DNA from: Anisakis pegreffii | Lineage: Eukaryota > Nematoda > Chromadorea > Rhabditida > Anisakidae | Assembly: GCA_035041965.1 (NCBI GenBank) | Contig: JAPYMA010003045.1 | Coordinates: 124,001-188,000, forward strand | Direction: 5' to 3' | DNA length: 64,000 bases | In this document: positions 4,906-55,493 of the stretch, piece by piece | How the letters are laid out: every line of letters begins with the position of its first letter | How positions within the stretch are numbered: the stretch's first letter is position 1 | The notes under the pieces: generated by a model | What the model was told of the DNA's origin: nothing | The model's database searches: none | Seen by the model: the letters and a program-made list of their open reading frames with translations, nothing else | Translations under genes and position numbers: made by a program

Positions 4906-7900
4906 ATAAGTGCATTCAACTGAAACATACAGCAAAATTGTTTGTATCGAAGATGTGTTCATTGACAAATGGTGTTTCATACAAAGTGTGATATAAGGGA
5001 TATGTATCATATGTAGTTGCATTCCTGAAATCAATAGATATCATCTGAAAATTATACCCAGAATGAAAAAGAATTCCCAGGATGAATCTTATCAACATGC
5101 ACAATTGCTGACCCTTCACAAAAGTTGCCCACTTTCTAATGAAACTACGATTCGCCTTCTCAACGTAATGCTCCGGAGAATCATTTATCATTAAGAAGAA
5201 GACTACATAATTACAAGAATTCCGAGCCCCAACATGATATGATAAATGTAACCACTCCAGTCGATAACAGTTAGGTTAGCTTACTGCTGTTACCGTAAGA
5301 GCTTTCAATATATTTGTTGTCGGTTTTTAATAGATTATAGCTCGTGCTGGTTGCATTTTCTCACATGATCTGAAATTGCGAACTAGAATAGTGCTCAATC
5401 AAAGATAACAGTTACTTGTATGTGAAATCGACCACAGGAACACCAATGAAGTTAAGAAACGCAGCATGGTCGCTGCCAGCACCGGGGACGGGTAATTTGG
5501 GCGCATCTGGTCGGAATTCAATTTCGTTTGGAAATGTATTGATCCTGAAAGAAGCACATCTTTCAATCACCACTTCAACAGATTGAAAATGCTTGATCGT
5601 TCTTCATGAACATCATGTTTGAAAGAACGCAAGAGTATTGATGGATAAAATATCTTAGTTTTCAAACGAAATATTTAATTGTATCACGATGAGAGACACA
5701 ATCGTGTAAACATGACATTGAATGAAATTCATGAAAGGATAAAATGAGGCAGCTCAGATTCACGTTATGCTGTACCACTTACCAAGTGTCGTAAACAGTT
5801 TTCCGTCCTTGTTTTACCTCTGAAATCATTGGATTTGGTATTCGTTTAGCAACATTGGTTGTCATTTGATAGAGAGTTGGTACGGTTGAAGCATACCTAT
5901 AGCAAAAATGAGTTCAATTACGAATAAAAATGCTAATAAGTAGATGAGTGAAGTGGAGGATGTTCAAATAAAGATTTAAAATTCTCTCCCATAGAAATTG
6001 ATGCTTCAGCTCAAGCAATAAGATTATCATAATGACAAGATTATGTCTTAAACGATCATGAAATTACAGCTTACGTGATACGATTATCACATCACTAAAA
6101 CGCGAGCACATTCATGAAATTCAGATGAACGTTCCAATGTATTTGATTGCATGAAAATTTTTCAACATCAACTGTAATAATTACATTGATTGATTCGAAT
6201 GAATATTGTCCACATTCAAATAGACAACCGCTCTTCGACTGAGAATATTTGCATATTCTTCGACAAATTCTGTTGAGCCAATCAGTCCATACTCTTCAGC
6301 ATCCCAACTGCAGAACATTATTGTTCGCGCTATAATAAAATATAAACATAGACAACAAGGCATTCTGCGACGTCTAATAGCAAAAATTGCTACCTTTAGA
6401 CTAATTTCTTCTTGCTATGCTACTGGGGATTGCTGTAAATGTGATTGATTGAAATCATACCAGGGCGCCAATTCGTTTCATTGATGGTCTGTGAAATGGC
6501 TCTGGCTACTTCGGCGAGTACCGCTGTTCCACTATTCGGATCAATAGATCCGTAAACCCAGGCATCAAAATGATTACCGAGAATCACATATCGGTCCGGA
6601 TCATCAGCGCCATGAATATAACCAATCACGTTACGAATCGTCCTGAAAAAACAAAAAAAATTTCGTCATCATCTTCTAACTCCTTCAATCTCGTTCATTA
6701 TATTGATCCACAAATGATTCGATGTGCGTTCACGTATGTTCGGACACCCCGTAATTCTTGCTGCCATCGGACGAAACGCATTCGAGCAATTTCGTTCATA
6801 ACCCATCCCGCAAAACTGTTAACAGACTTTTCCACATCGACTAGATTCTAGTTAAAAAACAACTTGTTAGCAATATATAGACGGGACGACAGCCATGAAT
6901 TGAGGTAAGAATATTGCAACAAAAAAAAAAGAAAAGAAACTAACCTTGTTTGCAGCGATGAATGAACAACAATACGAACTGTTGCATCATTTTTCAGATA
7001 CGGGCCAGTCCTGTAAGTGATATTCAACCCACCCTGCCAGTCCATCGGTGCTGCACGTCCTTTCATTCTCCTCAGTATTTCATAAGCGTCAGAATAACTC
7101 AGCGGTAAAACAGGAATCGACGGTAGACTTCCATCATCCTTAACCTGCAAACACATTAAATACGATCAATGAGCACGTATTATTATACCTATGTGTAGCA
7201 ATAACTACTAGTTGAGTACACATCTGAATCCGATTCATTTATAAAAAAAGCAAACAATTAGAAGATTCAAAACGATCGCCATGCAGCGGGAGACAGCTCA
7301 TATTATCAAATTATGGAAGACGAAATGCTGAACGACGATAAAAACTCCAATCTATTTTGCTGTTGAAGTAATCAAACGTCTAAAAGCGGAAAAAAATGAT
7401 TATCATCCCTATAAATACGAAAATGCTTTTTTTTCGTTAACACATTCGTACTCTTCCCTCATTGATAACAGTCACAAATTTGAATATCCATACGACTCGC
7501 ACTCCAAGTCATCCAGTGTAAGCGTTTTGTTCGTATCAACATAATTTTCAGCTGACCGCAATAGTGAATCAACTTGGAAACATTTGTTCATTAACCTCTT
7601 GAACTGTTTTTGTTCGATAAAGGTCCTTCGTTGAGGGATAGAGAGGTGAGAGCGGATCACCATTACAAACAGCGGTCGTTCCTCGTTGCACACCTTCGAA
7701 TGGCATCCATTCGGTATTCGGGTAAACTTTCTCTGCAATTCGCGATGAAAATATTTTTTTCATCGCTTAGAAGTCAAATGCGTCTAAATTTGTGTTTCTC
7801 ACAACGGGAGAGAGGAGTTTAGTTACTCTTGGGGCAATCTGAGGGTATCAGGGGGCATTTGAATATATGAACTGGTTGATAAACATTAATTTTTGTATCG

Positions 7901-9864
7901 CTAAGGAATGTTCTTCTTTTCACCGCTTTCCGGTGTTAAGTGTTGAAATTCGTATTTTTTTGCAATTGATGAATAAAATTCTAAAAATACTTGTTTCATT
8001 CAAGAGGAGGAGGAGGGGGGGAGAGAGTTATGCCAGACCACCGAAGGTGGTAATGGATCTTGCAAGCGTGAGAAACGCTGGTCTAGATGAATCATGAATG
8101 CAGTCGGTATTTTGAGTGCCCATTACGTTAACAGGCTACACCACTTAAAAGGTGTTGAATGAGGTTGTTTTAAATGAAATTCTCAACGATTTTATAAGAT
8201 CAGTCATTCATGTTGTTCTCTGAAAACAGCTTTAAACTGATTGTGAGTTGAATAGCCTAGAACATAGGAGTAGTACATTGCTCATTGCTTTCGAAAGATG
8301 ATTGAAAATCAAGTTGTTACATCGCATAATCCACACCTGGCCGTAAACCCATTCGAGCCACCTCAGCTGGATCCGAATATAAAATGGCTCCTATAGCACC
8401 ATTTAGTTGTGCTTTCCTGACCTTATCACCGCGAAATCCTTTGCCATACCTCATCAGTGCAATTCTATCCTGAACACGCTTATCATATACTTTCCGCTGT
8501 GAAGAACATTGATGCATTATTCCCAGAAAAACCAATCGAGCGAATTGAAGAACCATTTGAAGAATGAATGTGATCGGTTGCGAGATCATCGAATGCTCAA
8601 TAACGCTTATATCACCTCATTGGATTGAGCACCTTTCATTTTACAAGCACCTTTTATTCTACCTTAACGCTGATGCCAAGCTTGTTGAGCCTTTCGAAAT
8701 CCTCAGTCGTACCGTAGTTGCAATAGACTATTTCTCCCTCTGCCGTTCCATTTTCTGAATAGGCAAGCCATTGAATGCCTGCACCTGAAATTCCATTTTC
8801 AAATTTTCATTAATACTGCTTCTGAATTCCTGGAGACCAGTGAATTCTATTCCTCGACAATCACCAAAAATCACTGTGTTTCAACGAATGTTGATGACGA
8901 ACCTTCGGCTCCTTGCTCCTCCGGAATAATGACCGGACTCACACCTTTCGATATGTATTCCAATCTGCCGCTGTCAGCAATTATGAGCATCCGATTTGGT
9001 GTTTCATAATTTGGATACGATAATAACACTTCGTATTTTGTGAAGTGCACATCTGCAACCAACATAAAACGTGCTTACGATCCCGAGCTGTGGCTATGAA
9101 AAAATGGAAATATTCGCGAACACCTTAATTCCCCACTTCAACCTCCAAATCAATTATCTTCAACATCGCACCTGATAACCCATTTTTGCGCCACAAATCG
9201 GCAATTTTGCTCGCAACTTTCGTATTGGCTCGTGTTCCGGCTGGATGAGGTAGACTCGTTAGTAGTCGTAAATTTTCTCTTATGTTTTCGCCTTTAACGT
9301 TTGATATAAGACGCTCAGAGATACTTTGGTGGTAATCTGAAATGATTCAAGCATACTTCTTTAGTTCGTAATAATCGCCCTCGGTCTGCGGACATGATTG
9401 TTTTTCGGATCGACTCAATATTCCTCCATTTTCAAACATTTCTCAGAGCCATTCCGATTTGGATATATTTACGACGATCGCTATGGCATAGAAAATCTAT
9501 TTTCTATTTTCGATTGAAAACCTATGAAAATCTAATTTCTCGAATAGTTTTTAATCTAGAGAGAATGGCGCAAGACAGTCTGGTCATTTTTTCAAAAGTT
9601 GAGCCAGTGCCCCTCCTCAGAGAGGGATCGGCGGCTTTTATAAATCTTTGGATCAATGAGCGGGGATTTTTATGAATATATGAAGCAACTAAAACCAACT
9701 AACTCACCTTCAACAGTTCCAAGCCTGGGTTGTTTTGCAGGATGTGCTGTATGATAAACACCCAATAAACCAACGAGAACAATTGCTACAAATCCAATCC
9801 CCAGAACGGATGTGGCACGCATCATTGCCTTACTGCACAAGCTATTTGCTGCAATACTCACCAT
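3556..9864 (-). CDS. FOLH1: Glutamate carboxypeptidase II / NAALADase homologue (M28B metallopeptidase), complete, 15 exons
   Basis: Exons (minus strand): 9864-9708, 9336-9172, 9052-8903, 8784-8663, 8496-8337, 7732-7596, 7144-6945, 6642-6461, 6329-6185, 5896-5783, 5544-5416, 5024-4931, 4692-4483, 4207-3968, 3684-3556. Every phase joins in frame, giving 777 residues (human FOLH1 has 750). The protein is a type II membrane protein: short cytoplasmic tail, hydrophobic helix about residues 18-37, protease-associated region, M28 catalytic core and C-terminal dimerisation domain. Zinc and catalytic residues are all present: H388 (GNHFDAW), D398 (SIDPNSG), E436/E437 (WDAEEYG), D465 (NVDN) and H566 (PLYHT). 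The family removes C-terminal acidic residues from extracellular peptides. Several human glutamate-pocket residues differ here (see findings), so the substrate may differ. The start is the first ATG before the membrane helix. Exon 3 uses a weak donor (GTTCGT). Confidence 0.95.
4812..4903. repeat. (TA)n/(TAAA)n microsatellite in carboxypeptidase intron 12
   Basis: Alternating TA runs surround ATAAATAAA runs. It lies wholly within the intron between 4931 and 4692. The ORFs read through it (YIYIYI) are artefacts. Confidence 0.9.
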
Positions 9865-36510: not shown

Positions 36511-36764
36511 TTGATAGTGATATGAGAAGCAATTCGACAACAGTTACAAAGTATATATGATGTGTTGGCACGAGCATGACAAGGCTAAGATGTTTCAAAG
36601 GTGTTGATAGAAAAAAAGAGGATTTGCAATGCTTGTTTGATGGACTGGGCAAGAAATGGAAGAATAAGAAGAAGTTTTTATGTGTCAATTCGCATCCACA
36701 TCTATGTCTGAAAGCGTATGTAATGATCACCACTTTTCACTACCGAAACCACTGCTTCACAGCT

Positions 36765-37066
36765 CATCCGCATCGTTTTAAAACTCATCTGCACTGTAAT
36801 AAAACTCATCTTCGCTGTAATAAAACTCATCTGCACTGTAATAAAACTCATCTTCACTGTAATAAAACTCATCTGCACTGTAATGAAACTCATCTGCACT
36901 GTATTAAAACTCATCTGCATCGTTATGAAACTCATCTGCATCGTCATAAAACTCATCTGCATCGTTATGAAACTCATCTGCATCGTCATAAAACTCATCT
37001 GCATCGTTATGAAACTCATCTGCATCGTTATGAAACTCATCTGCATCGTCATAAAACTCATTTGCA
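36765..37066. repeat. 21-bp tandem repeat forming the ApoL-like C-terminus
   Basis: About 14 units of AAACTCATCTGCATCGTTATG and close variants. Units above 36904 have CATCGT/CATCGTCAT spacers. Units below it are mostly of the CACTGTAATA type, so there are two subfamilies. On the minus strand the repeat encodes the heptad (H/Y)(N/D)DADEF or YS(A/E)DEFY. It lies in the last exon and immediate 3' region of the ApoL-like gene. Confidence 0.85.
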
Positions 37067-40000
37067 CCGTTATAAGGCCTGACAGCTTCTGCAACTATAT
37101 CGCAAATAACATCGAGTTCCTCTCGCCGACGTCTCACCTCTTGTCGCAAATCCGCACTCAATTCTGATGGTGAACCATCAAGTATTGTTTTCACTGAAGT
37201 ATACATCGAATAGACATCCATTGCTATAGTTATCCCAATGGCAGCATGTGCCACTACATTGGCCTGAAACAAGCAGTTCTGTACTTTCAAGCCGACTTCT
37301 CGCAATCTCTTTCCATTGAATAGGAAAATTAAAAACATCACAAAACAAAAAATGACTGCATAAACGTTCACAGAAATAATTGGTGAAGAGGCTCAACAGA
37401 CAAGAGGCGAAGCGTGATTCATGTTTAATTCTTGGGCTGAACAATCTGTCAAAAAAATTATACATGCAATATCATTGTCCGATTTTCATTTGGGAAAACT
37501 ACCGACGAAAATTATGTATCTTTACAGATTTTTAAAAGGATTGCGAAAATATGTACAACAGAATACGGAAGAAACTGGACGTGACTTTACAGCGAGAAAA
37601 CGCTAATGAACAGCGAATGATGTAAGGAAATGCAACTACGAAATTATGCATTTGAAGAACGATTATTCCAGCTGGAGACGAAAAATTTATGATTGTTCAC
37701 AGTGATAAACGAACCATAGTCGATGCTCTCCCAACATTCGTAGCAGCAGTACGGGCCGCTCTAGCACCGCCCTGAATCATTTCGGACAATCATTCAATTA
37801 TAACAACCAAAGAAAGACAAGCGTACAAATGTGGCTGAAGACGTAACATTGTATCACCGTACTAATCAAAAATTGGCCAAAATGGCCATAGACAGCAGAT
37901 TAGAATGGTAAGGCTGAGAGCAAAGCCACTACAACATTTCCATGTTTAAGCAGATTCGAAAAAGTTTCTCCAGTCAAACGCACATTTCGATTTCCCCAGA
38001 ATAATCGTTCATGAAAAATCTAATTCTTACGCAAACTGATACGTTAACCTCTAAAATACAAGGCTTGTGAACTGGAACCAGCTTTTTAACACAGCATACG
38101 ATCCGATGTTTAACAAAGGGTATGATATTCACAACAAAAGCTTAGTGAGTGAGGACTGACTCCAACCATAAATTTCTCACAAAAATCCCTCTACTGAATG
38201 TGAAACAGCGTTAAGTTATGATTTTGTCCTCAACACCTGACTGACCGTACTCATTCGACCAGTGAATCCCATAAAAACCTCTGGTCGTCGACTGCTTATT
38301 GTCAGATATTATCACATCGCGTTGTGATTTGTCGATAGACAGATATAGCAGAATGAGGCCAGTTTATTGCTTCGCAGGTTTAACTCATCACTTGACACAT
38401 TTCACCTTATCACAATACCGAACAATCAGTATTTTCAGCAGTTCAGAAATGAGTATCCTTTTGTTAACTGTGTTAGGACGGAATTTTGTGAACCTCAAAA
38501 GAACAACGACACCTTCCATCAACTGACTAACCCTTTTAGCGAATTGTCCTCCAGCTCGGGAAGCCGCCTTTGTGAATCCTCTAGCACCTGCCTGAAAAGG
38601 AGGTAGTGGAAAAATCGTCGGGAATATTGATGTAAAATGCATTTCAATTGGGTTATTCCAAACCCTATGTGGCCAAGAACTGAGACTTCTTCCAAAAACC
38701 AAGACATCAAAAAGTAGAACAAAACTGGACATGAACACGAGTGACTTCCTATTGATTGTGAGAAGATGCTAGTGAATTGAGAATGACATGAAACAGCATA
38801 ATTATAAAATTACGCATTTGCAGACTGATTGTTTCATTTGCGATAAAAATGTATTACTGTGAATAGTGATGAACGAACGACTCCAGTCGATGCTCTCTAC
38901 GCTTTCGCAGCAGCTGTACCGGTGCTTAGCACAGGCGCAAATGACTTTAGATCGGGGGTTGGCAACCCCGGTCCGCGGGCCAAAACTGGCCCGCCGACAA
39001 ATTTTTTGGCCCGCCAGATGAATTTGAGAATTTGATTTTGAATGGGTAAAGAACGAAAAGAAAAAAGGTTTTAAATTATTTAGCTATTACACTGAAGATT
39101 TTCAACACAGAGTTTCCAAAAAAGACGACTGACTGTGTCACCGACACATATTGGAAAGAATTCGTTTCTACGGAGACTAATCGGACAACCTCTAAAATAT
39201 AAGGCGTATGGATCGAAATCAGCTGGACACCGCAAGTTGCGAACTGGCAACTTTTACCCACATTTCCTCATCGTCCAAATATTAATTATTGATAGTGTTA
39301 ACTGTTGATCTTAACGATATTATGATTCTTAATATTAACTGTTAGTTAACAGTTTGAACATTAATTATTATAAATTATGATATCAACAAATATCACAATC
39401 GATATTGTCATTCTTGTAAATATTGATAATGTCATTTTCACCCTGACGACGATGTCACAATTGATAATGTTAGTCGTATAAAGATTGATAACGTATGCAT
39501 CCCATGTTCACACATATGTATTTTGTAAATTTATTTTTATCTCTCACATGTATATACATACATTCATGCATTTTCCCATACATATAATGCATCCTCGCAA
39601 TTGTCACATATCTTCCGTATACCAACACATCTTACTGTGTGTGACCTTATGTCAGCTGTTTTCAAACCTCCAAAATCTTATCATTTTTATATATAGCCGC
39701 ACCCCCAAATGTTCAATACCTCAACTGGATTGTTTGTTGTTGCTCAAACACACGTCAAGCTTTGTTTCTCAATCACAAGTTAAGATTCGTTCGTTCATCA
39801 ATCCTCGACTATATTTCTGTCAGTTCGATTCATCATCCCGTTCTGAACAAATATATTCTGCGTAAAATATTAGTTCGATGTCTAGTGGTATGTTGGTCCG
39901 GTTATTGAAAAAAAACCTCTGGCCGTCGATCGCTTAGCAATTACTGATGTTAGGAACCGACAGATGTTTTTCGGTGGTCCCTGACCGAATACCCTGTCGG

Positions 40001-43000
40001 GGATCACCAAACATCGGTGGCCATAAATAGGAAATTTTTAGGCATCGGTCGATTGTCGATCGGTGGTAACAGAATTTCAGTTTGGCGAGGCCCCCGACCG
40101 AACAAGCCCTTTCGGTTGCGGTCTTGGGTCACCGAAAACCGGGATCCGCCAGAAGTGGACATTGTTCGGTTTCGGTCGGTTGCACCGAAATTTACTGCTC
40201 GCTTGACACCGACCGGACAAGCTTTTTCGAATGCAGTCAAGATCCTCCGACCACGACCGCGTCCGAAAAAAATTTCGAGGGTCGCCGAATTTCGGTTTTT
40301 TCGACGGTACTAGAAATTTCGTCGTACAAGTCTCACGATGTATATTTCTCGCCTTTTCACCGCACAACATTCATCATTTGAAACGTAAATTTCTGGAAGC
40401 AGCTTCATGTTAACCAGAGACAAAATTTATTAACATGTTAAAATGCAGTATATTAGAGAGATTTTTGAAATTTCACCGAAAGAGTAATGTTAAATTTAGA
40501 AACTTTACTGGTCAAATTATATCATTACGATTGAAAACAGTACTGTTCGTCTTTTTGTCATGTCATTTTTACAGAAATGAGTAGACAGTCAACCTCGTAG
40601 TGTGACAGTGTTGTATTAGTAGAGGTAAGGTGCTTTGACGAATATTATCAAAAATTATTAATAATTAGATAAATTGGACTGTTAACGGTTGTTTACCTTC
40701 TCCTGATTATCATACAGTTACCAAAACTGTATGATAATCAGAAGAACATAAACAACCATTAATAATGTTCGTCGGGAAGCGAGATCCCCGTCTAGTGGCC
40801 TACTTCGTATCAATTCATTTAAAGCACTGACAGAGCACACGGCAGGGGCTAAAAGTGTTCATCTTGTGGTGACCATTCATAAACGAGGGATTTGTTTGCC
40901 ATCGAAACTGGGCCGTGTTCGGTGGCACCGAAACTTGTTCCTCGTTTGCCTCCGACCGAACAAGCGTTTTCGGTTGCAGCCGAGAGTCAACGAAAATTCG
41001 ATGGCCACCGACAGGCAATTTTTGAGCATCGGTCGGTTGTCGATCGGAGGTAACTGAAATTCGGCTTACCGAGTCCCCCGACCGAACAAGGCCTTTTGGT
41101 TGCGGTAAGAGGCCACCGGAAATCGGTCGGTAATTATCGACTGAATTTTCGGGGGCCCTCGCGGTTCGGTGTCCACCGACCCGACTCTACATAGGATCAC
41201 AACGTGTTCTCTTTTCTCGGAAACCAGATATAACAAAATGAGGCCACTTTATTGCTTTGCAACCTTGATTTCTTCCTCTACAAGTGTTGTCTTATCACAA
41301 CACCGAGGAACCAGTTCTTCCAGCAGTTCAGAAATGACTATTCTTGGAAGCTGAAGGATTTTCTATACTGAGTCAGGATGCAATTTTCCATAACTTGAAA
41401 AACAACAACAGTTTCCATGAGCTAACTAACATTTTTAGCGAATTGCGCACCAGCTCGGGAAGCTCCAGTTGCGAATCCTCTAGCACCCGCCTAAAAATGA
41501 GATGTTGCAAGAAGCGTTGGATATCTTGATCTAAAATGCATTCTAATTGGGTTTTTCATAACTCTATGTGGCCGAGAAGTGAAGCTGCTTTCAAAAACGG
41601 ATACAATAAAACATTGAAGTGTGGAAAAGCCGTCAGTTCATAAATAAATATTCTTGGAAGCTGACTGATTTTGTAAACTATGCTACGATGCGACTTTGTG
41701 AATTAGAAGGAACAACGACAGCTTCGATACAATTTTGTGAACTTAGAAGGAGCAACAAAAGTTTTCATCAGATAACTAACATTTTTAGCGAATTGCGCAC
41801 CAGCTCGGGAAGCTCCAGTTGCGAATCCTCTAGCACCCGCCTAAAAATGAGATATTGCAAGAAGCGTTGGAAATCTTGATCTAAAATGCATTCTAATTGG
41901 GTTTTTCATAACTCTATGTGGCCGAGAAGTGAAGCTGCTTTCAAAAACGGATACAATAAAACATTGAAGTGTGGAAAAGCCGTCAGTTCATAAATAAAAA
42001 TTCTTGGAAGCTGAATGATTTTGTAAACTATGCTACGATGCGACTTTGTGAATTAGAAGGAACAACGACAGCTTCGATACAATTTTGTGAACTTAGAAGG
42101 AGCAACAAAAGTTTTCATCAGATAACTAACATTTTTAGCGAATTGCGCACCAGCTCGGGAAGCTCCAGTTGCGAATCCTCTAGCACCCGCCTAAAAATGA
42201 GATATTGCAAGAAGCGTTGGAAATCTTGATCTAAAATGCATTCTAATTGGGTTTTTCATAACTCTATGTGGCCGAGAAGTGAAGCTGCTTTCAAAAACGG
42301 ATACAATAAAACATTGAAGTGTGGAAAAGCCGTCAGTTCATAAATAAATATTCTTGGAAGCTGACTGATTTTGTAAACTATGCTACGATGCGACTTTGTG
42401 AATTAGAAGGAACAACGACAGCTTCGATACAATTTTGTGAACTTAGAAGGAGCAACAAAAGTTTTCATCAGATAACTAACATTTTTAGCGAATTGCGCAC
42501 CAGCTCGGGAAGCTCCAGTTGCGAATCCTCTAGCACCCGCCTAAAAATGAGATATTGCAAGAAGCGTTGGAAATCTTGATCTAAAATGCATTCTAATTGG
42601 GTTTTTCATAACTCTATGTGGCCGAGAAGTGAAGCTGCTTTCAAAAACGGATACAATAAAACATTGAAGTGTGGAAAAGCCGTCAGTTCATAAATAAATA
42701 TTCTTGGAAGCTGACTGATTTTGTAAACTATGCTACGATGCGACTTTGTGAATTAGAAGGAACAACGACAGCTTCGATACAATTTTGTGAACTTAGAAGG
42801 AGCAACAAAAGTTTTCATCAGATAACTAACATTTTTAGCGAATTGCGCACCAGCTCGGGAAGCTCCAGTTGCGAATCCTCTAGCACCCGCCTAAAAATGA
42901 GATATTGCAAGAAGCGTTGGAAATCTTGATCTAAAATGCATTCTAATTGGGTTTTTCATAACTCTATGTGGCCGAGAATTGAAGCTGCTTTCAAAAACGG

Positions 43001-46000
43001 ATACAATAAAACATTGAAGTGTGGAAAAGCCGTCAGTTCATAAATAAAAATTCTTGGATGCTGAATGATTTTGTAAACTATGCTACGATGCGACTTTGTG
43101 AATTAGAAGGAACAACGACAGCTTCGATACAATTTTGTGAACTTAGAAGGAGCAACAAAAGTTTTCATCAGATAACTAACATTTTTAGCGAATTGCGCAC
43201 CAGCTCGGGAAGCTCCAGTTGCGAATCCTCTAGCACCCGCCTAAAAATGAGATATTGCAAGAAGCGTTGGAAATCTTGATCTAAAATGCATTCTAATTGG
43301 GTTTTTCATAACTCTATGTGACCGAGAAGTGAAGCTGCTTTCAAAAACGGATACAATAAAACATTGAAGTGTGGAAAAGCCGTCAGTTCATAAATAAAAA
43401 TTCTTGGAAGCTGAATGATTTTGTAAACTATGCTACGTGGAAAAGCCGTCAGTTCATAAATAAAAATTCTTGGAAGCTGAATGATTTTGTAAACTATGCT
43501 ACGATGCGACTTTGTGAATTAGAAGGAACAACGACAGCTTCGATACAATTTTGTGAACTTAGAAGGAGCAACAAAAGTTTTCATCAGATAGCTAACATTT
43601 TTAGCGAATTGCGCACCAGCTCGGGAAGCTCCAGTTGCGAATCCTCTAGCACCCGCCTAAAAATCAGATGTTGCAAGAAGCGTTGGATATCTTGATCTAA
43701 AATGCATTCTAATTGGGTTTTTCATAACTCTATGTGGCCGAGAAGTGAAGCTGCTTTCAAAAACGGATACAATAAAACATTGAAGTGTGGAAAAGCCGTC
43801 AGTTCATAAATAAATATTCTTGGAAGCTGACTGATTTTGTAAACTATGCTACGATGCGACTTTGTGAATTAGAAGGAACAACGACAGCTTCGATACAATT
43901 TTGTGAACTTAGAAGGAGCAACAAAAGTTTTCATCAGATAACTAACATTTTTAGCGAATTGCGCACCAGCTCGGGAAGCTCCAGTTGCGAATCCTCTAGC
44001 ACCCGCCTAAAAATGAGATATTGCAAGAAGCGTTGGAAATCTTGATCTAAAATGCATTCTAATTGGGTTTTTCATAACTCTATGTGGCCGAGAAGTGAAG
44101 CTGCTTTCAAAAACGGATACAATAAAACATTGAAGTGTGGAAAAGCCGTCAGTTCATAAATAAAAATTCTTGGAAGCTGAATGATTTTGTAAACTATGCT
44201 ACGATGCGACTTTGTGAATTAGAAGGAACAACGACAGCTTCGATACAATTTTGTGAACTTAGAAGGAGCAACAAAAGTTTTCATCAGATAACTAACATTT
44301 TTAGCGAATTGCGCACCAGCTCGGGAAGCTCCAGTTGCGAATCCTCTAGCACCCGCCTAAAAATGAGATATTGCAAGAAGCGTTGGAAATCTTGATCTAA
44401 AATGCATTCTAATTGGGTTTTTCATAACTCTATGTGGCCGAGAAGTGAAGCTGCTTTCAAAAACGGATACAATAAAACATTGAAGTGTGGAAAAGCCGTC
44501 AGTTCATAAATAAATATTCTTGGAAGCTGACTGATTTTGTAAACTATGCTACGATGCGACTTTGTGAATTAGAAGGAACAACGACAGCTTCGATACAATT
44601 TTGTGAACTTAGAAGGAGCAACAAAAGTTTTCATCAGATAACTAACATTTTTAGCGAATTGCGCACCAGCTCGGGAAGCTCCAGTTGCGAATCCTCTAGC
44701 ACCCGCCTAAAAATCAGATATTGCAAGAAGCGTTGGAAATCTTGATCTAAAATGCATTCTAATTGGGCTTTTCATAACTCTATGTGGCCGAGAAGTGAAG
44801 CTGCTTTCAAAAACGGATACAATAAAACATTGAAGTGTGGAAAAGCCGTCAGTTCATAATTAAATATTCTTGGAAGCTGACTGATTTTGTAAACTATGCT
44901 ACGGTGCGACTTTGTGAATTAGAAGGAACAACGACAGCTTCGATACAATTTTGTGAACTTAGAAGGAGCAACAACAGTTTCCATTAGATAACTAACATTT
45001 TTAGCGAATTGCGCATCAGCTTGGGAAGCCAATGTTGCGAATCCTCTAGCACCCGCCTGAGAATGAGATATTGCAAAAAGCGTTGGAAATCTTGATCAAA
45101 AATGCATTGTAATTGGGTTATTCATAACTCTATGTGGCCGAGAAGTGAAGCTGCTTTCAAAAACAGATACAATAAAACGTTGAAGTGCGGAAAAGTCGTC
45201 AGTTCATAAATGATTATTCTTGAAAGCTAAAATATTTTATAAACTGTGTTAGGATGCAACTTTGTATATCAGAAGGAATATCGACAGTTTCGATACAATT
45301 TTGTTAACATGGAAGGAGCAACAATAGTTTCCATCAGATGACTAAATTTTTTAGCGAACTGTTGTCCAGCTCGGAAAGACGCCGTAGCGAATGCTGCGGC
45401 ATTCGCCTGAGAAGCGGGTGGTGAACAAGCCGTTGCACATGTTGATATATCCTGTCTATGTTATTTGATGTTATATATGAGATTGTTCGATGATCTATCT
45501 GCTTTCACTGAATTCTTGTTTAAGCTAAGCAACGATAGATTAATCATCGTTGTCTTAAAAAAACCCTTAAAATCCTTAATTTTCCCATAAGCATCCAACA
45601 TTATTCGTTTGCGCGTTTTGTTCCACCATGTTTAAATACACTTCCTCAGAATACTTTAAAATATGCCATAAAACGTGGTAACTTCAGCAAAATCCAACAT
45701 CCATTAGAAAATCCAATGAAGTTTTCCTTCTCCAGTTATAGGGGCGACAATGTCACCATATTCCATTCATGCTGAACACCTCCCTCGCTAAAATGAAACT
45801 ATTTACCAGTCGATATTCGCTTCGTCCTCGGATTAGTTTAGACATTTTGATTTGTCAACTGTTCAACTCCAACTCTACTACTGCCCCAGTTTGTAATTTG
45901 TTCTGTTAGAGCAACGGTTTTCAACCTTTTTCGCTGTGTGGACCCCTAGAAAATTTAAAGATGCCCTCGTATGCCTACCTTACCTCGCATACTCTCCCAC

Positions 46001-49000
46001 ACTCCCCACTCACTCCTCCTATCGCACCCACTCTCGCATCCCCTCTCACCCCACTCTCTCGGACCCCCCGGGGCTCCACGGACCCAAGGTTGAGAAAGCA
46101 TGTGTTAGGAGAATGGAAAATGCTGATAGATTTACTCCCTTGGCCCTTCATTTGGAGCACCTTCCAGTGGTCTCAGGATGAAGCAAGTGGTCAGTCAGAA
46201 TTGATCTTGAGTCTGAAATACTTCAGACACCTTGAATAGCCAACCCTTTAGCTTCATTATGCACAGTTCATAATTTGTCAACACTTCCTTATTGATACTG
46301 TCGACATTTTCCCAGTTAAACCGTTTCTTTTCGATATTTTCCCGGTTGGAGAAATTTTTGCTGACACCTTTCCACGTAACCATTCGACAAGTTGTTTTTC
46401 CAACAGCTTAACGCTTGTCCTGATGCATTGCACGATAACACAATATATTTCAAATTACTTTGTCAGAAAGATGCAGAATTCAAAAGGAATGCAATAAGTA
46501 CCAATAAAAACGAACCAGTCCTCCCTTAGCGAAACTTGTAGGAAACGTATCCTTTTCCTGCAACAAAATGAGTGATGCTAAAAGAAACGACGTTTAGGGC
46601 TGGACAAATCGTAGATTGCATGTAAAATATCTGACAATTTCGCATCAGATGCGTGTGGGGTTTAGCCTTACCTAATCAAGCTTAAACCTCAACCTGTGCG
46701 ACCCTAATTCAGAGTCTGAGTTGTGCGCTAACTCTTGCTGTCAGGTACTTCGCATTCATTTACGGTGCTCAACCGCCTGTCTTCCTCAGCAGGGAACAGT
46801 GATCTTAAAGTCCTAGAATGACGACCGCCTTCAGCCATTGTTGAGATTTTCAGCTATGTGCTTTAAAATATTTCCATCACATGAACTATTAGTCGTCATC
46901 CATCAATGAGGTTCTCTGAGCAAACAATCTATCTTCACTCATGATTGCATTTTTTACTTTCTTTGACACTTTGCTGACTTTTACACTCTGACATTCATTC
47001 TATTATCCAAGATCGTTCATTATTCAGCTTCTTCAAGAAATCAGCCGCTTTCATTTGAATCGTTTTCGCAACTCTTGCGTTTAGCTTCATTTTCAGTTTG
47101 TAAAATATAATTATTGTTCATCACAATAGGAAAAAGAAAGTTATTATCGAATGGATATATTTCTTCAGTTAAGAGTTGAAGATGATGTGAACTGGAGAGG
47201 TGAAAAGAGAAGGAAATGTTGCATGTATTTGAGGATTGTCGACAATGAGAACAAAATGAAATGTTTCAGAGCATTTCAGAGAACTTGCTGTCTTTAGCGG
47301 GAGGCAGTGGTCTTAGCGGGGTAGGCAGGACGAAATTGCTGATGTTGTCCTCAGATGAGTGTACATAATCCATTGTGCAAAACTGTACAGAGCATTGTCC
47401 ACTGAAAGTTGCAAGCACCATACCCAATAAGTGCGCTTTATTCACGATGATTCAGCGTCAAAGGGCAACCCCGGACAGTGTTATTCTCACGAAGGAATCA
47501 GGTCTTACAAAGCGCTATGATGACTAGAGATTCTAGTATTCTTTCTTATTCACATCAAACAATCCTACGTCTCTAGATGTTCCATATACTGTTTTAAAGA
47601 TGGAGATTTCTTTTTCAGATTTCCAACTGAGTACGAACGAAAATGTGATCCATTGATTTTCTATAAAACTCCACATGAACAAGTACTCATTATTTAATGA
47701 AATTTTGGAAAACTGATACCGTTGTCATTGTTTCCATCCGTCTCCTTGCGGCTTCTGTCGTAACGGCACTCACCTGAAACATGTCCTCATTTTGAGTTGC
47801 AGTAATTTGTAAAACCACGGGAATTGGTCGAATCGCAGAGTAACTAAAAGGTTCTTCCATTCAAAATTGTGACATTCTACAGGCACTGCTCACCTTTATT
47901 TCCGATCAACAACAGATAGCTCATTTTTATGCTAAAAGATGGGACAGCAAAATAGAGTATCGCGAAAATAAAGGTGGAGAATGAATTATGACTGTACCGC
48001 AAACAAATTACAAGCAACTACTGATTACTGTCTTTGATTCAGCAAGTAATACGGTATCAAAGCATCTCGTGGCTTTTAGTTCTACAAGCTCTTTCAGTTT
48101 TACAATCAAAACACCTCGTGTTTTAGTTCTACAAGCCTTACAGGCATAGTTTCCTTGTTCGGTCCGCTCATGTGGGGAGATTTCGATTGGTCATATGAAG
48201 AAAATATTTGAATTATTTTGCTCAGCTTTACGAGTGTCACTGTAAATGCATGATCCCTATTTTTAAGAATTTCAAAAGAATCATGATAATAATCGAACGA
48301 CCAGCTCCGTTCCTGTGATTATCTGATAGACGCGGTTCAATTCGTCGATCTGTTCAGCATCTCTTTCAAGAAGACGTCTTACTTCATTTCTCAATTCGTT
48401 GTCCTTCGTACATTGAAAGATGTCTGTTCCGATTACGACGCCCGCCGCTACACCGCCTGCATCGAACAAAAACAAAGTCACTGTTTGACTTCTGGAACAC
48501 TTCATCTCATGAATCTAATCAGCAAAAAAGGTATTCTAATGTATGTTGAAGTAGTTTACTATCTACCAATTTCTAGGGGTTCGCAAAAAAATTAATCATC
48601 ACACTGTTAATGTCAGTAAGGGAATAAAAACAGAGGAAGACAAACCAGCGGCCGCTAATGGTGTAAAAGCAACAAGACCGGCTATGGAAGCTAACCCAGC
48701 TGCAACGCCGACCCCGCTTCCAGCAAAAGTTGAGATTGCACAACCTTTCTTCATTCTATCACCCTCAAATATTCACCACGGTCACAAAAATAACTCACAA
48801 TCAGTTGAATCTTCATATTATTCAAATATTGTAAGATATCGAATGAAATGAGCAGTTAAAATGAAATGGTCAGTAAAAATCATGCGTCGGTAGGTCTATG
48901 CGTTCATGATAATGTAATGGGATGTCGGGGACAGGGAAAGCCGGGGACTAAGTTTCGTGGACCAAGAAAACACTTTCAGCTCAAAAAAGTCAGAGACGGG

Positions 49001-50029
49001 CTCTCAAAATTTCCCGTTACCTGCAAAACATTATTATACCCTTATCTACACCTGCGCGTTGCAGGGATGGAAAAAAAATGAGGAAGGAAAAAGTGGGGGA
49101 CGAAATTTCGCAATCCGAGTGCCGAAAAAGCTGTCCCCGGTCCCCGATAAGCACTAGTTGGTGAGTAACATTGTGATTCTTCAGCTGTTCTATCAGACTC
49201 GACGTGCACTCGAATATTGACCATACAAAAATCGCACATTTTTGCAATGCGCTAGCTACAATTTACCACTGCTGTCAGAGTAACTGCTCGATCTTCCGGC
49301 TAGACGAATAGATAATTCGTACATTAATATTAACCTCATCAGCGATTTTTTCCAAGTCATCGAACAGTTCTAGACGATTACAGACAAACACATTACAAGC
49401 GCCTTCAAGTTCCCTTTGGAGATTGTGTAATTCTTGTTCACTCTGTGGATCCTACAAATATGTAGTATTGAATTGGTGGATGTTAATGAATTACAAAAAT
49501 AGGCCTGAAGTACAGAATCGTTATTAAAATACATTTTTCACTTCAGTGGAAAGAGATGAAAAGTGAATCACTGAGGACAAATTATTGGAGAATTTTGCTT
49601 GAATATTTGAATGCATTCGAACAAACATAAAAAAATCTTTTCCGATTCATCAAATATTGCTTGCACTAGGTTCACGCTGTTTGAATTCACTCCATTAAAA
49701 CTTTAGTCAATGACATTGCCTTTGTAGATGGCGCAACGCTTGAGCAGTAAAGAGAGCGTTCCTTCTTGCTGTTGATTTTTCAAGTTTATCACACCGATTT
49801 TTGAAATGTGCGGTAGAAATGATTCACTTCATTGTTGCAGAGCTCTGTACAAAATTTTGCCAGAAAAGAACCACATGCTGTGATACGGAAGCTCCTTGAA
49901 CTTTTCAGCACGACAGTAAGCGTTTGCTGCAACCGAATGCTCCCCTGTTGATATTTTTTCTCGAATTTTTTTCTTCAGTTTCCGTACTAGAGGCAGAAAT
50001 GATTCAAGATGGTTCTTAAAAAACAATCC
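36904..50029 (-). CDS. Apolipoprotein L-like protein with a tandemly amplified 60-nt exon; 5' end not found
   Basis: Exons (minus): 50029-about 49850 (donor unclear; ESFLPLVRKLKKKIREKI), 49451-49335 (heptad-like LHNLQRELEGACNVF), 48763-48646, 48456-48302, 47773-47720, the array exons (41431-45056), 38591-38532, 37771-37715 and 37263-36904. The glycine-rich core MKKGCAISTFAGSG, ASIAGLVAFTPLAAAGG, then GTDIFQ and a coiled segment (EVRRLLERDAEQIDELNRVY) match ApoL order. The last exon (AMDVYSMYTSVKTIL, LRQEVRRRREELDVI) matches the ApoL C-terminal helix pair. All exons from 47773 on are phase 0. ApoL proteins are membrane- or lipid-associated and can act on ion permeability. Without the 48302 splice (weak donor GTCGTT), the 48456 exon runs to a stop at 48281, giving a short form. 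Family call good; joining everything into one transcript is inference. Confidence 0.65.
37715..37771 (-). other. 57-nt phase-0 exon of the ApoL-like gene (relative of the array exon)
   Basis: Acceptor ATGATTCAG, donor ATG/GTTCGT. Encodes GGARAARTAATNVGRASTM. It lies between the 38591 exon and the terminal exon. Confidence 0.6.
37960..38760. repeat. Segmental duplication, partner of 50370-51065
   Basis: About 0.8 kb aligns block by block with 50370-51065: TTTCTCCAGTCAA, CCTCTAAAA, CCAGTGAATCCC, CAGAATGAGGC..GTTTATTGCTT, CAGTTCAGAAATGA and the 60-nt exon. A diverged version of its distal part begins the array at about 41220. Confidence 0.75.
38532..38591 (-). other. 60-nt phase-0 exon, diverged relative of the array exon
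   Basis: Acceptor CCTTTTCAG, donor AGG/GTTAGT. Encodes AGARGFTKAASRAGGQFAKR, 16 of 20 residues identical to the array unit. Confidence 0.7.
38885..38945 (-). pseudogene. Dead copy of the 57-nt ApoL-like exon
   Basis: The flanks match those of the 37715-37771 exon (GATGAACGAACGACTCCAGTCGATGCTCTC against GATAAACGAACCATAGTCGATGCTCTC in outline). The exon itself carries a TAG and lacks the CAG acceptor. Confidence 0.5.
38953..39040. mobile_element. hAT-like terminus rich in GGCCCGC
   Basis: CGGGGGTTGGCAACCCCGGT is followed by CCGCGGGCCAAAACTGGCCC and a second TTGGCCCGCC. The GGGGTTGGCAA start followed by GCGGGCCAAA...GGCCCGCC is a layout seen in widespread animal hAT-type repeats. Only one end is visible. 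Confidence 0.45.
39950..40312. repeat. CGGTCGG-rich repeat, copy 1
   Basis: GC-rich block with GCATCGGTCG, TTGTCGATCGG, CCCCGACCGAACAAG and TTTCGGTTGCGGTC, repeated in the same order at 40890-41190. ORFs through it are artefacts. Confidence 0.6.
40687..40757. repeat. Near-perfect inverted repeat with a 5-nt loop
   Basis: The left arm (40687-40719, GGTTGTTTA...CATACAGTT) pairs with the right arm (40725-40757, AACTGTATG...TAAACAACC), about 33 bp per arm. It could fold as a hairpin RNA or be a tiny fold-back element. Confidence 0.75.
40890..41190. repeat. CGGTCGG-rich repeat, copy 2
   Basis: Collinear with 39950-40312: TTTTGAGCATCGGTCGG, TTGTCGATCGGAGGTAAC, CCCCGACCGAACAAGG. Confidence 0.6.
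41225..45425 (-). repeat. 350-bp tandem array, each unit carrying a 60-nt ApoL-like exon
   Basis: Exon copies lie at 41431-41490, 41781-41840, 42131-42190, 42481-42540, 42831-42890, 43181-43240, 43597-43656, 43947-44006, 44297-44356, 44647-44706 and 44997-45056. A twelfth, diverged copy at about 45347-45406 has its GT donor changed to TT. The unit is 350 bp, except one of 416 bp (43369-43784) containing a 66-bp internal duplication. Each minus-strand exon has an acceptor ...TTTTTAG (TTCTCAG in the 44997 copy) and a donor AAT/GTTAGT, and encodes AGARGFATGASRAGAQFAKN or a close variant. Units are almost identical, so the array is young or homogenised. The plus-strand 86-residue ORFs (MWKSRQFINK...) are shadows. 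Confidence 0.9.
45426..47719. other. Intronic region between the array and the 47720 exon
   Basis: It holds the hAT-like element at 45912-46102 and a short minus-strand ORF at 46195-46383 without homologous exon sites. No further ApoL-like exon was found, but an exon this short could be missed. Confidence 0.4.
45912..46102. mobile_element. 191-bp hAT-like miniature element (CAACGGTTTTCAACC start)
   Basis: The left end CAACGGTTTTCAACCTTTTT and the right end GGTTGAGAAAGCATG are imperfect inverted repeats of the common hAT type (CAG.GGTTCTCAACC). The flanking 8-mers TGTTAGAG and TGTTAGGA agree at 6 of 8 positions. Confidence 0.55.
47720..47773 (-). other. 54-nt phase-0 exon of the ApoL-like gene
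   Basis: Acceptor ATGTTTCAG, donor ACG/GTATCAG. Encodes VSAVTTEAARRRMETMTT, sharing the VSA start of the exon at 50934-50993. It is the first linker exon after the ApoL core exons. Confidence 0.55.
48913..49155. repeat. GC-rich hAT-like fragment in an ApoL-like intron
   Basis: It runs from GATGTCGGGGACAGGG to GTCCCCGATAAGCACTA. The right end resembles the TAGTG-type termini elsewhere in the window. No matching target duplication was found. Confidence 0.4.
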
Positions 50030-50369
50030 CTGTGAAATTTTAGCCAAAAGTATTGATTGTGGGATTGGCGCCTGCTGATCTCCACATTTAGTGCTCGCTC
50101 CCTAACATGATCACAATATTAGAATCATCGCGTTGACGTCACTCATAACCAGCGCGTATCATAAAGCTGCATTATCAGTTTAGGTGCCCACATTATTAGA
50201 TAATAAAAAATAGCAAGAAAGGACAATGTCGAAGCTGTTAACTAATTTGGCAATTTCCACCATAAGCCAAAACCGTTTGCAGTGATTGCTTCAACGAAAA
50301 GCAAAATATAACGGAACAGAATAGTCTTCCATCTTCGACTACAATGTTTGATCTGTTTAACCCGAACGT

Positions 50370-51065
50370 TCGAGAACGTTTCTCCAGTCAACTATATCGC
50401 ACTTCGATATCCTCACAAGAGCGTTATTCATGAAAAAAATCGTTTCTGCGGAGACTGATAGGATACCCTCTAAAAGGCGTATACATCGAAATCAGCTGGA
50501 CACCGCTTACGATCCAATGTTTTGCGATCTTCACAACAGAAACTTAGGGAGAAAGGACTAACTCTGTCCGTAAATTTCTCACGAACATCCCCTTACAATT
50601 AGTGAACGTTGGGTTACATATTCGCCCCGACACTTCAGTGACCGCACTCATTTGACCAGTGAATCCCCAAAAACCCCTAATCGGCGACTACTTAGGCATG
50701 ATCACATCGTGTTATATTTTGTCGGTAGGCAGATATAACAGAATGAGGCTAGTTTATTGCTTTGCAAGTTTGATTCATCACTTTACAAACGTTGCATTAT
50801 CATAATATTGAAGAACCAGTGTTTCTAGCAGTTCAGAAATGAATATCCTGGGAAGCTGAAGGGTTGTACCTATGTTAGATTTGAATGCAGTAAACGTAGA
50901 AAGAACTGCGATTACTTTCATCGAATGACTAACCATTTCAGCAAATTCCCTTGAAGCCGCTGCATCCGCTCTTGCGAATCCTTCAGCACTCACCTGAATA
51001 AGAGGTAGTGGGGAAGCCGCTGGAAATGTTGATGGAAAATGCTGTGCAACCAGTTTATTCCAAAC
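50370..51065. repeat. Segmental duplication, partner of 37960-38760
   Basis: Same block order as the partner segment, including the 60-nt exon at 50934-50993. Its presence upstream of the ApoL core exons suggests it is a remnant of a neighbouring duplicated copy. Confidence 0.75.
50934..50993 (-). other. Isolated 60-nt ApoL-like linker exon upstream of the core exons
   Basis: Acceptor CTTATTCAG, donor ATG/GTTAGT. Encodes VSAEGFARADAAASREFAEM; the other two frames contain stops. No ApoL C-terminal exon follows before 50029. It may be an orphan exon from a partial gene duplication, or it may be spliced to the 50029 exon (phase 0 fits). Confidence 0.45.
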
Positions 51066-51090
51066 TCTGTTATATATACATATCATTTGT

Positions 51091-54832: not shown

Positions 54833-55493
54833 TAGTGTTCGTCGGGGAGCAATTTTTTGCACGGGGGGGTCCCCGCGGGGAGTAAATTGGACGGGGAGGG
54901 TCCCCGCGAAAAAGTCGGGGAGCAAATTGCGCGGGGGGGGTCCCCGCGGGGAGTAAATTGGACGAGGGGGGTCCCCGCGAAAAAGTCGGGGAGCAAATTG
55001 CGCGGGGGGGGACCCCGTCGGGGAATGACCGCTCCCCGTGTTCCCCGACGGGGAGGACGGGGAGCATTTCAGCTCAATTTTTTAAACAAAATTTCAATTT
55101 TTTAAAGATTTTTCTCCTTTTTTTAAGTAGTTTTCTTTCAAGTGCACCTTATACTCACATTTCAAAACAAAAAACAAGACAATATTGAAAGTGTTGCAGC
55201 TGTCTTTCACCATTTTCAGTTAAATGTTCGCGATATTCGGGAAGGTTCGCACTCCCCGTCCTCCCCGTCGGGGAGGACGGGGAGCTCGTCCTCCCCGTCG
55301 GGGAGCGAAATTGGACGGGGAGCTCCCCGCGAAAAAGTCGGGGAGCAAATTGCGCGGGGGGGTCCCCGCGGGGAGTAAATTGGACGGGGGGGGTCCCCGC
55401 AAAAAAGTCGGGGAGCAAATTGCGCGGGGGGGAGCGCTCCCCGCGTTCCCCGCCGGGGTCCCCGACGGGGACCCCGTTCCCCGACGAACACTA
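54833..55493. mobile_element. 661-bp GC-rich hAT-like element with perfect 8-bp target duplication
   Basis: It starts TAGTGTTCGTCGGGGAGC and ends GTTCCCCGACGAACACTA. The flanking 8-mers are identical: ATTGTGAG at 54825-54832 and 55494-55501. The interior consists of tandem blocks (GTCCCCGCGGGGAGTAAATT, GGACGGGG, CGCGAAAAAGTCGGGGAGC) and one T-rich spacer (55070-55240). It encodes nothing. The perfect duplication suggests recent insertion. Confidence 0.88.

What the first reader, a model, noticed from the sequence alone, without database searches (positions are those of the whole stretch)
41225..45425. Tandem exon array: 11 intact 60-nt phase-0 exons inside an ApoL-like gene
Seen: each 350-bp unit carries an exon with an intact acceptor and donor on the minus strand, exactly 60 nt long, with no frame-breaking change. 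Single diverged relatives (54-60 nt, all phase 0) sit on both sides at 47720, 38532 and 37715, followed by an ApoL-type C-terminal exon. Inference: splicing all copies would insert a linker of 11 repeats of a 20-residue A/G/R-rich unit between the ApoL core and C-terminal helices. Copy number could change by unequal crossing-over without breaking the frame. Skipping or mutually exclusive use would give protein diversity. I know of no described ApoL with such an architecture.
Basis: partly seen in the sequence, partly recalled or inferred. Interest (0 to 1): 0.92.

Follow-up and report, generated by a model that had tools for sequence, protein, structure and literature searches.

The report
Repeated mini-exon in worm ApoL gene
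In the genome of a parasitic roundworm close to the herring worm Anisakis, a gene related to apolipoprotein L carries one 60-base exon copied eleven times in a row, probably a recent expansion of a string of tiny exons like the one in its sister gene; whether the copies are used in the protein is not known.

Summary
On the minus strand, 11 units of about 350 bp each carry a 60-nt phase-0 exon with AG and GT borders; ten are identical, one differs at 6 bases. A twelfth copy has lost its donor. Genome searches matched the unit only at this locus. The gene is ApoL-like: core plus terminal exons pass the Pfam cut-off. The strongest new evidence is a sister gene on another contig, near-identical to an Anisakis simplex protein and related to Toxocara canis proteins. 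It has the same layout: ApoL core, six diverged phase-0 exons of 51-63 nt, terminal exon. Its small-exon residues are 76% identical to Toxocara, so the string is old. The array is a local expansion of one such exon. Against strong claims: array-type exons diverge about as fast as their flanks; pN/pS is 0.55-1.14, never significantly below 1; some copies are dead; no transcript or protein record shows them in use. Inclusion, copy-number variation and isoform diversity remain untested. I rate it a new variant of a known kind (exon-level repeat expansion) with moderate interest.

The parts
49335..49451 (-). core exon A (DPQSEQ..IADE), 117 nt, phase 0 at both ends
   Evidence: counterpart in C146 gene (found at E = 0.13)
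48646..48763 (-). core exon B (GDRMKKGCAIS..PLAAAG), 118 nt; weak-looking acceptor TTTGAG
48302..48456 (-). core exon C (GGVAAGV..GTEL), 155 nt, ends in phase 0; weak-looking donor GTCGTT; an in-frame TGA follows after 6 codons of intron
50934..50993 (-). small exon relative, 60 nt (VSAEGFARADAAASREFAEM), upstream of the core exons, so probably outside the gene
47720..47773 (-). small exon, 54 nt, phase 0 (VSAVTTEAARRRMETMTT)
45347..45406 (-). array copy 1, 60 nt, donor GT lost (TTTAGT)
44997..45056 (-). array copy 2, 60 nt intact, 6 differences
44647..44706 (-). array copy 3, 60-nt exon
44297..44356 (-). array copy 4, 60-nt exon
43947..44006 (-). array copy 5, 60-nt exon
43597..43656 (-). array copy 6, 60-nt exon
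43181..43240 (-). array copy 7, 60-nt exon (416-bp spacing from copy 6)
42831..42890 (-). array copy 8, 60-nt exon
42481..42540 (-). array copy 9, 60-nt exon
42131..42190 (-). array copy 10, 60-nt exon
41781..41840 (-). array copy 11, 60-nt exon
41431..41490 (-). array copy 12, 60-nt exon; the sequence downstream of it is an older, diverged flank
38880..38932 (-). decayed copy of the 37771 exon: no AG directly in front, 2-nt deletion and 3-nt insertion against the live copy
38532..38591 (-). small exon, 60 nt (AGARGFTKAASRAGGQFAKR)
37715..37771 (-). small exon, 57 nt (GGARAARTAATNVGRASTM)
36904..37263 (-). terminal ApoL exon with seven 7-residue acidic repeats ([YH][DN]DADEF) before the TAA

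Best explanation
This is an ApoL-like gene of an Anisakis-type nematode. Shown by sequence: in the sister gene the linker between the ApoL core exons and the C-terminal exon is encoded by a string of tiny phase-0 exons; in this gene one such exon, with its intron, is present in 11 intact tandem units of about 350 bp. Inferred: amplification went by unequal crossing-over within the array. The ten identical exons, the intermixed order of two intron types and the dead copies at the edges fit birth and death of exon units. Inferred and untested: at least some array exons are spliced into at least some transcripts. Each adds 20 residues of small, positively charged, probably helical sequence, so linker length can change without breaking the frame.
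For: Array and splice borders. ApoL: core plus terminal exons without any small exon score 43.8 bits against a cut-off of 25.9; core alone 24.6 bits (profile 69-116) and terminal exon alone 21.5 bits (profile 244-295), both under the cut-off; small exons alone give no ApoL hit. Sister gene on C146: same order of core exons, six phase-0 exons of 51-63 nt, terminal exon. Its translation matches A. simplex P0001 and T. canis P0002. Its six units are 84 of 110 aligned residues identical to T. canis (60-94% each), against 55, 90 and 68% in exons A, B, C and 75% in the terminal exon. Large exons of the window gene against C146: pS 0.77, pN 0.37 over 197 codons, a coding pattern, though pS is near saturation and the constraint could lie on either gene. 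By a profile of the sister units, 3 of 1263 control AG..GT open stretches score as high as the array exon and 2 as high as the 37771 exon. Small exons of both genes are 50-60% GC against 26-39% in the flanks measured.
Against: Exon and flank divergence do not differ (10 pairs sharing copies, ratios 0.63-1.97, p 0.10-1); against its 150 downstream bases alone, exon 45406 is even more diverged (p 0.04, one of four such tests, uncorrected). pN/pS is 0.55-1.14, below 1 in 9 of 10 pairs but never significantly. In 9 full units, 10 variable sites fall in introns and none in exons, probability 0.15 by chance. Keeping frame and splice sites in the diverged copies is only mildly unlikely without constraint. 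Exon B acceptor and exon C donor look weak (my judgement, no splice model). No database protein carries the array. Other relatives score poorly by the sister profile: 50993, 45056 and 38591 are reached by 29, 17 and 22 of 1263 controls, and 47773 scores -0.2.
Confidence: 0.55

Rival explanations
1. The array is an intronic tandem repeat that by chance amplified a unit holding a small exon; the copies are mostly skipped or ignored by the spliceosome and evolve neutrally, while the gene works with its few diverged small exons.
For: Exon and flank diverge alike and pN/pS is not significantly below 1; the ten identical copies are too young to show selection; copy 45406 has lost its donor and a copy of the 37771 exon has decayed.
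Against: 11 of 12 copies keep AG, GT, length and frame, and the copies measured have an exon-like GC rise; pN is below pS in 9 of 10 pairs, though not significantly; small exons in the sister gene are conserved in database proteins.
Confidence: 0.3
2. The window gene is a recent pseudogene of the ApoL family, so the array has no protein consequence.
For: Weak-looking exon B acceptor and exon C donor; a TAA interrupts the 21-nt repeat of the terminal exon while open repeats continue beyond it; no protein record found; no first exon identified.
Against: All four large exons are open, with a coding-type substitution pattern against the sister gene (pS 0.77, pN 0.37), and core plus terminal exons score well as ApoL. 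A long-dead duplicate would not be expected to keep this.
Confidence: 0.12
3. The unit is coding or functional on the plus strand: a long open stretch lies in most array units.
For: 89-codon plus-strand stop-to-stop ORFs in 8 of 12 array units and a 111-codon one at 43360-43695; about 80 codons also at the 38591 relative.
Against: Within the stretches scanned the open frame falls to 52 codons in unit 45056, 63 in 41490 and 42 in 45406 and 50993. No homologue search was made with this frame.
Confidence: 0.02
4. The copy number is an assembly artefact.
For: Long near-identical repeats are hard to assemble; read data were not available.
Against: Units carry distinct intron variants in mixed order, and one carries a 66-bp duplication, which a simple assembly loop would not give.
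Confidence: 0.05

Closest known systems
Anisakis simplex and Toxocara canis proteins labelled Apolipoprotein L3 (P0001, P0002, P0003)
   Same: Family; exon order (seen in C146 DNA only); string of small units before the terminal exon
   Different: Six diverged units (four in P0003), none tandemly amplified. P0002 and P0003 differ by two units, but I saw no transcript support for either
Human LPA kringle IV type 2 repeat (PMC6314250; abstract and passages seen)
   Same: Tandem, near-identical exon-bearing units inside one coding region; copy number changes protein length
   Different: 5.6-kb units with two exons of 160 and 182 bp and proven population variation; unrelated protein. Here 350-bp units with one 60-nt exon and no population data
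Schistosome micro-exon genes (PMC4350168; passages seen)
   Same: Very small symmetrical exons that could be skipped without frame loss
   Different: Most of their coding region is such exons and alternative splicing is reported; unrelated proteins; splicing untested here
Dscam-type tandem exon arrays (PMC1397879; start of abstract in listing only)
   Same: Tandem arrays of homologous exons in one gene
   Different: Dscam arrays undergo mutually exclusive splicing; that their copies are diverged is recalled. Here ten copies are identical, so choosing among them would give no diversity
Collagen 54-bp exons and elastin cassette exons (recalled, no call)
   Same: Repeated small in-frame exons coding Gly/Ala-rich units
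   Different: Unrelated sequence; old, diverged repeats

Membership tests
Apolipoprotein L (PF05461) | Profile score over the curated cut-off (25.9 bits) | tested here: met
   43.8 bits for core plus terminal exons without small exons; 29.4 bits for a model with small exons. Sister model 26.4, P0002 41.6, P0003 53.1, P0001 24.9 and so just under
Apolipoprotein L (PF05461) | N-terminal core and C-terminal segment both present and in order | tested here: met
   Core maps to profile 69-116 and terminal exon to 244-295, each under the cut-off alone (24.6 and 21.5 bits)
Apolipoprotein L (PF05461) | Fold similarity to a solved ApoL structure | tested here: inconclusive
   By sequence only one PDB match, an unrelated-looking fdrA protein at E = 0.03; AlphaFold model of P0002 had mean pLDDT 38, too poor to search
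Apolipoprotein L (PF05461) | Membrane insertion or channel activity | not testable with these tools
   Needs an assay
Micro-exon genes | Most of the coding region in very small symmetrical exons | tested here: inconclusive
   True only if the array is spliced in: about 277 residues in small exons against about 249 in the large ones (my sum from the lengths; no first exon counted)
Micro-exon genes | Alternative splicing of the small exons | not testable with these tools
   No transcript data
Exon-bearing VNTR (LPA KIV-2 type) | Near-identical tandem exon units in one gene | tested here: met
Exon-bearing VNTR (LPA KIV-2 type) | Copy number differs between individuals | not testable with these tools
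   One assembly only

The most novel reading that the evidence does not exclude
A nematode ApoL with a hypervariable exon-level repeat: individuals carry different numbers of identical 20-residue cassettes between the ApoL core and its C-terminal helices. With exon skipping this yields a ladder of linker lengths in a membrane-active protein, tuned by unequal crossing-over on top of an ancestral micro-exon string.
Probability: 0.25. Interest if true: 0.78.

Novelty: new variant of a known kind. Interest (0 to 1): 0.52.

Why it matters
It may show a gene caught in the act of making a repeat protein from a micro-exon: the sister gene gives the old, conserved state and this one the fresh expansion. 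That makes a testable case of how linkers built from symmetrical small exons grow and die. If the array is spliced in, it would be an exon-level length polymorphism in an ApoL-like protein of a nematode, a group for which my searches found no text on this family.

Tried and rejected
Own-genome search with the ApoL family found nothing, but the control genomes did not ring either, so it was uninformative; exon-wise protein searches worked instead. The idea that the unit is a dispersed transposon was rejected: all matches of the 350-bp unit (15), of the 770-bp stretch around the 38591 exon (13) and of the joined unit peptides (13) lie at this locus (the tool calls its counts lower bounds). A plus-strand gene is thought unlikely but not excluded. 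Special RNA structure in one unit was rejected (z-score +1.65, 97 of 100 shuffles fold at least as well). A fold search was not made because the model was too poor. Selection on array exons was tested and not shown, with low power. Literature: nine searches, of which five named ApoL (18, 32, 39, 50, 51); none listed a paper on nematode ApoL architecture as far as titles and abstract starts show. Passages were seen only of PMC4350168 and PMC6314250. The library holds open-licence papers only.
Full report
WHAT IS THERE. The window is part of a 122.7-Mb assembly in 1740 contigs. A spliced model of the sister gene (below) is 91% identical by BLASTP to an Anisakis simplex protein over its full length; in the alignment I find one residue substitution (C to R), the rest being differences in where exons were cut. 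So the source is A. simplex or a very close relative; this is an inference. On the minus strand between 45406 and 41431 lie 12 copies of a 60-nt stretch in units of 350 bp (one spacing of 416 bp). Ten copies are identical, one differs at 6 bases, and the 5'-most differs at 18 and has no GT donor. The exon is 55% GC in the identical copies, 50% in 45056 and 53% in 45406, against 31-37% in the flanks measured. All genome matches of the unit lie at this locus (15, 13 and 13 matches; the tool calls such counts lower bounds).

THE GENE AROUND IT. Upstream on the same strand lie three exons (A 49451-49335, B 48763-48646, C 48456-48302), and downstream a terminal exon from 37263 to the stop at 36906-36904. 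Joined without any small exon, and with the terminal exon cut before its repeats, they score 43.8 bits against Pfam ApoL (cut-off 25.9). Core exons alone reach 24.6 bits and match the front of the profile; the terminal exon alone reaches 21.5 bits and matches its end; both are under the cut-off. Small exons alone do not match ApoL. The array thus sits in the linker between the two ends of an ApoL-like protein. No first exon was identified; exon B holds an in-frame ATG that could serve as a start.

THE SISTER GENE. Searching the genome with exon peptides gave one further locus, contig C146, for all three queries (for exon A only at E = 0.13). There the order is the same: exons A, B, C, then six open phase-0 exons of 54, 57, 51, 54, 63 and 57 nt with AG and GT borders, then the terminal exon. 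Database proteins from Anisakis (344 aa) and Toxocara canis (347 and 318 aa) carry residues matching this string; the Anisakis record also lacks the end of exon C and has an insert of 13 residues, and the shorter Toxocara protein lacks units 2 and 3. These may be gene predictions, so the last point only hints at cassette behaviour. Identity between the C146 model and Toxocara P0002 is 84 of 110 aligned residues in the six small exons (60-94% each), 55% in exon A, 90% in B, 68% in C and 75% in the terminal exon. The small-exon string is therefore old and about as conserved as the rest of the sister protein.

HOW THE ARRAY AROSE. A self-comparison shows an older duplication of a segment of about 750 bp holding the exon: 37943-38666 against 50354-51068 (70% identity) and 38311-38712 against 41196-41611 (72%), with a further piece at 39154-39233 (82% to 50432-50506). 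Later a 350-bp piece was amplified. Among nine full units the mean pairwise difference is 1.1%, at most 3.1%. Two intron variants fully linked in these nine units define two unit types whose order along the array is mixed, as expected from repeated unequal exchange. Edge copies are older and diverged, the exon at the 5' edge has lost its donor, and a copy of the 37771 exon at 38932-38880 has decayed, with no AG in front and with a 2-nt deletion and a 3-nt insertion. This looks like birth and death of exon units. The mechanism of exchange is inferred.

IS THE ARRAY UNDER SELECTION? Not detectably. In all 10 pairwise comparisons of copies, exon and flank divergence do not differ (ratios 0.63-1.97, p 0.10-1). 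The pairs share copies and are not independent, and the upstream flank of 45406 is not alike, which inflates its flank figure. Against 150 downstream bases alone, exon 45406 is more diverged than its flank (18 of 60 against 25 of 150, p 0.04, uncorrected), while 45056, 38591 and 50993 show no difference (p 0.20, 0.18, 0.62). pN/pS runs from 0.55 to 1.14 and is below 1 in 9 of 10 pairs, but no pair is significant (p 0.21-1), and with about 16 synonymous sites power is low. So weak constraint is not excluded. The nine full units have 10 intronic variable sites and no exonic one, probability 0.15 by chance. Simulated random substitution leaves no stop in 53-83% of cases at the observed divergences, and the chance of keeping AG and GT is 0.11-0.81, so intactness is weak evidence. 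By contrast the large exons of the window gene against C146 give pS 0.77 and pN 0.37 over 197 codons, near saturation at silent sites. The gene has probably been protein-coding for a long time; the array copies need not be.

ARE THE WINDOW'S SMALL EXONS RELATED TO THOSE OF THE SISTER? A profile of 12 sister units (6 from C146, 6 cut from Toxocara P0002) was scored on 1742 AG..GT open stretches of 45-72 nt from the window and loci L023-L025; 1078 got a score. The 1263 from outside the two ApoL loci serve as controls. The array exon (3.3 bits) is matched or beaten by 3 controls, the 37771 exon (3.7) by 2, 45056 by 17, 38591 by 22 and 50993 by 29; 47773 scores -0.2. The best chance match scores 8.1, so no single exon is proved by this alone. 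Position, phase, length and GC carry the rest of the argument.

MECHANISM. My best account is a modular linker. Each cassette adds 20 residues rich in Ala and Gly, with small-xxx-small spacing (8 pairs in the array unit), net charge +3 and a helical moment of 0.52. The model of P0002 is mostly helical, but at mean pLDDT 38 I do not weigh it. Because every small-exon border is phase 0, any number of cassettes can be included.

WHAT IS KNOWN. Exon-level repeat expansion has a clear precedent in human LPA (PMC6314250: 5.6-kb units with 2 exons, 1 to more than 40 copies; abstract and passages seen). Genes made mostly of tiny symmetrical exons are known in schistosomes (PMC4350168, passages seen). 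Five searches naming ApoL in an open-licence library listed no paper that, by title and abstract start, describes nematode ApoL architecture. No protein with the array was found in the protein database; those two searches cover relatives of about 167-607 residues that share exact 5-residue words, with some 8000 candidates scored in each. Sequence alone found no solved relative.

VERDICT. The array, its splice borders and its ApoL context are real, and the sister gene turns an odd pattern into an interpretable one. Use of the array in protein, copy-number variation and isoform diversity are open. Interest 0.52.

Noticed in passing
36763-37075 (-): A 21-nt tandem repeat (14.9 copies) in the terminal exon codes seven 7-residue acidic repeats; a TAA then stops the frame while about six more repeats stay open beyond it. 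The same gene thus has a second in-frame repeat.
   Followed up: partly
48281-48301 (-) and L023 5072-5089 (-): In both ApoL genes an in-frame stop follows the exon C donor, after 6 codons in the window and 5 in C146, so retention of that intron would give a short core-only protein.
   Followed up: partly
50934-50993 (-): A relative of the array exon with intact borders lies upstream of core exon A; no terminal exon was found between them.
   Followed up: partly
40006-41126: Two pieces 79% alike (40006-40142 and 40990-41126) lie between the array and the 38591 exon, perhaps part of a mobile element in the intron.
   Followed up: no
54857-55432: GC-rich tandem repeats of 30-71 bp with CCCCG-type motifs in an AT-rich region.
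   Followed up: no
6420-8616 (-): Open stretches that look like a glutamate carboxypeptidase II-type gene (recognised by eye, no search).
   Followed up: no
P0002 versus P0003 (Toxocara canis): Two database proteins of the sister gene differ by two small-exon units (units 2 and 3) besides a short insert at the B-C border.
   Followed up: partly
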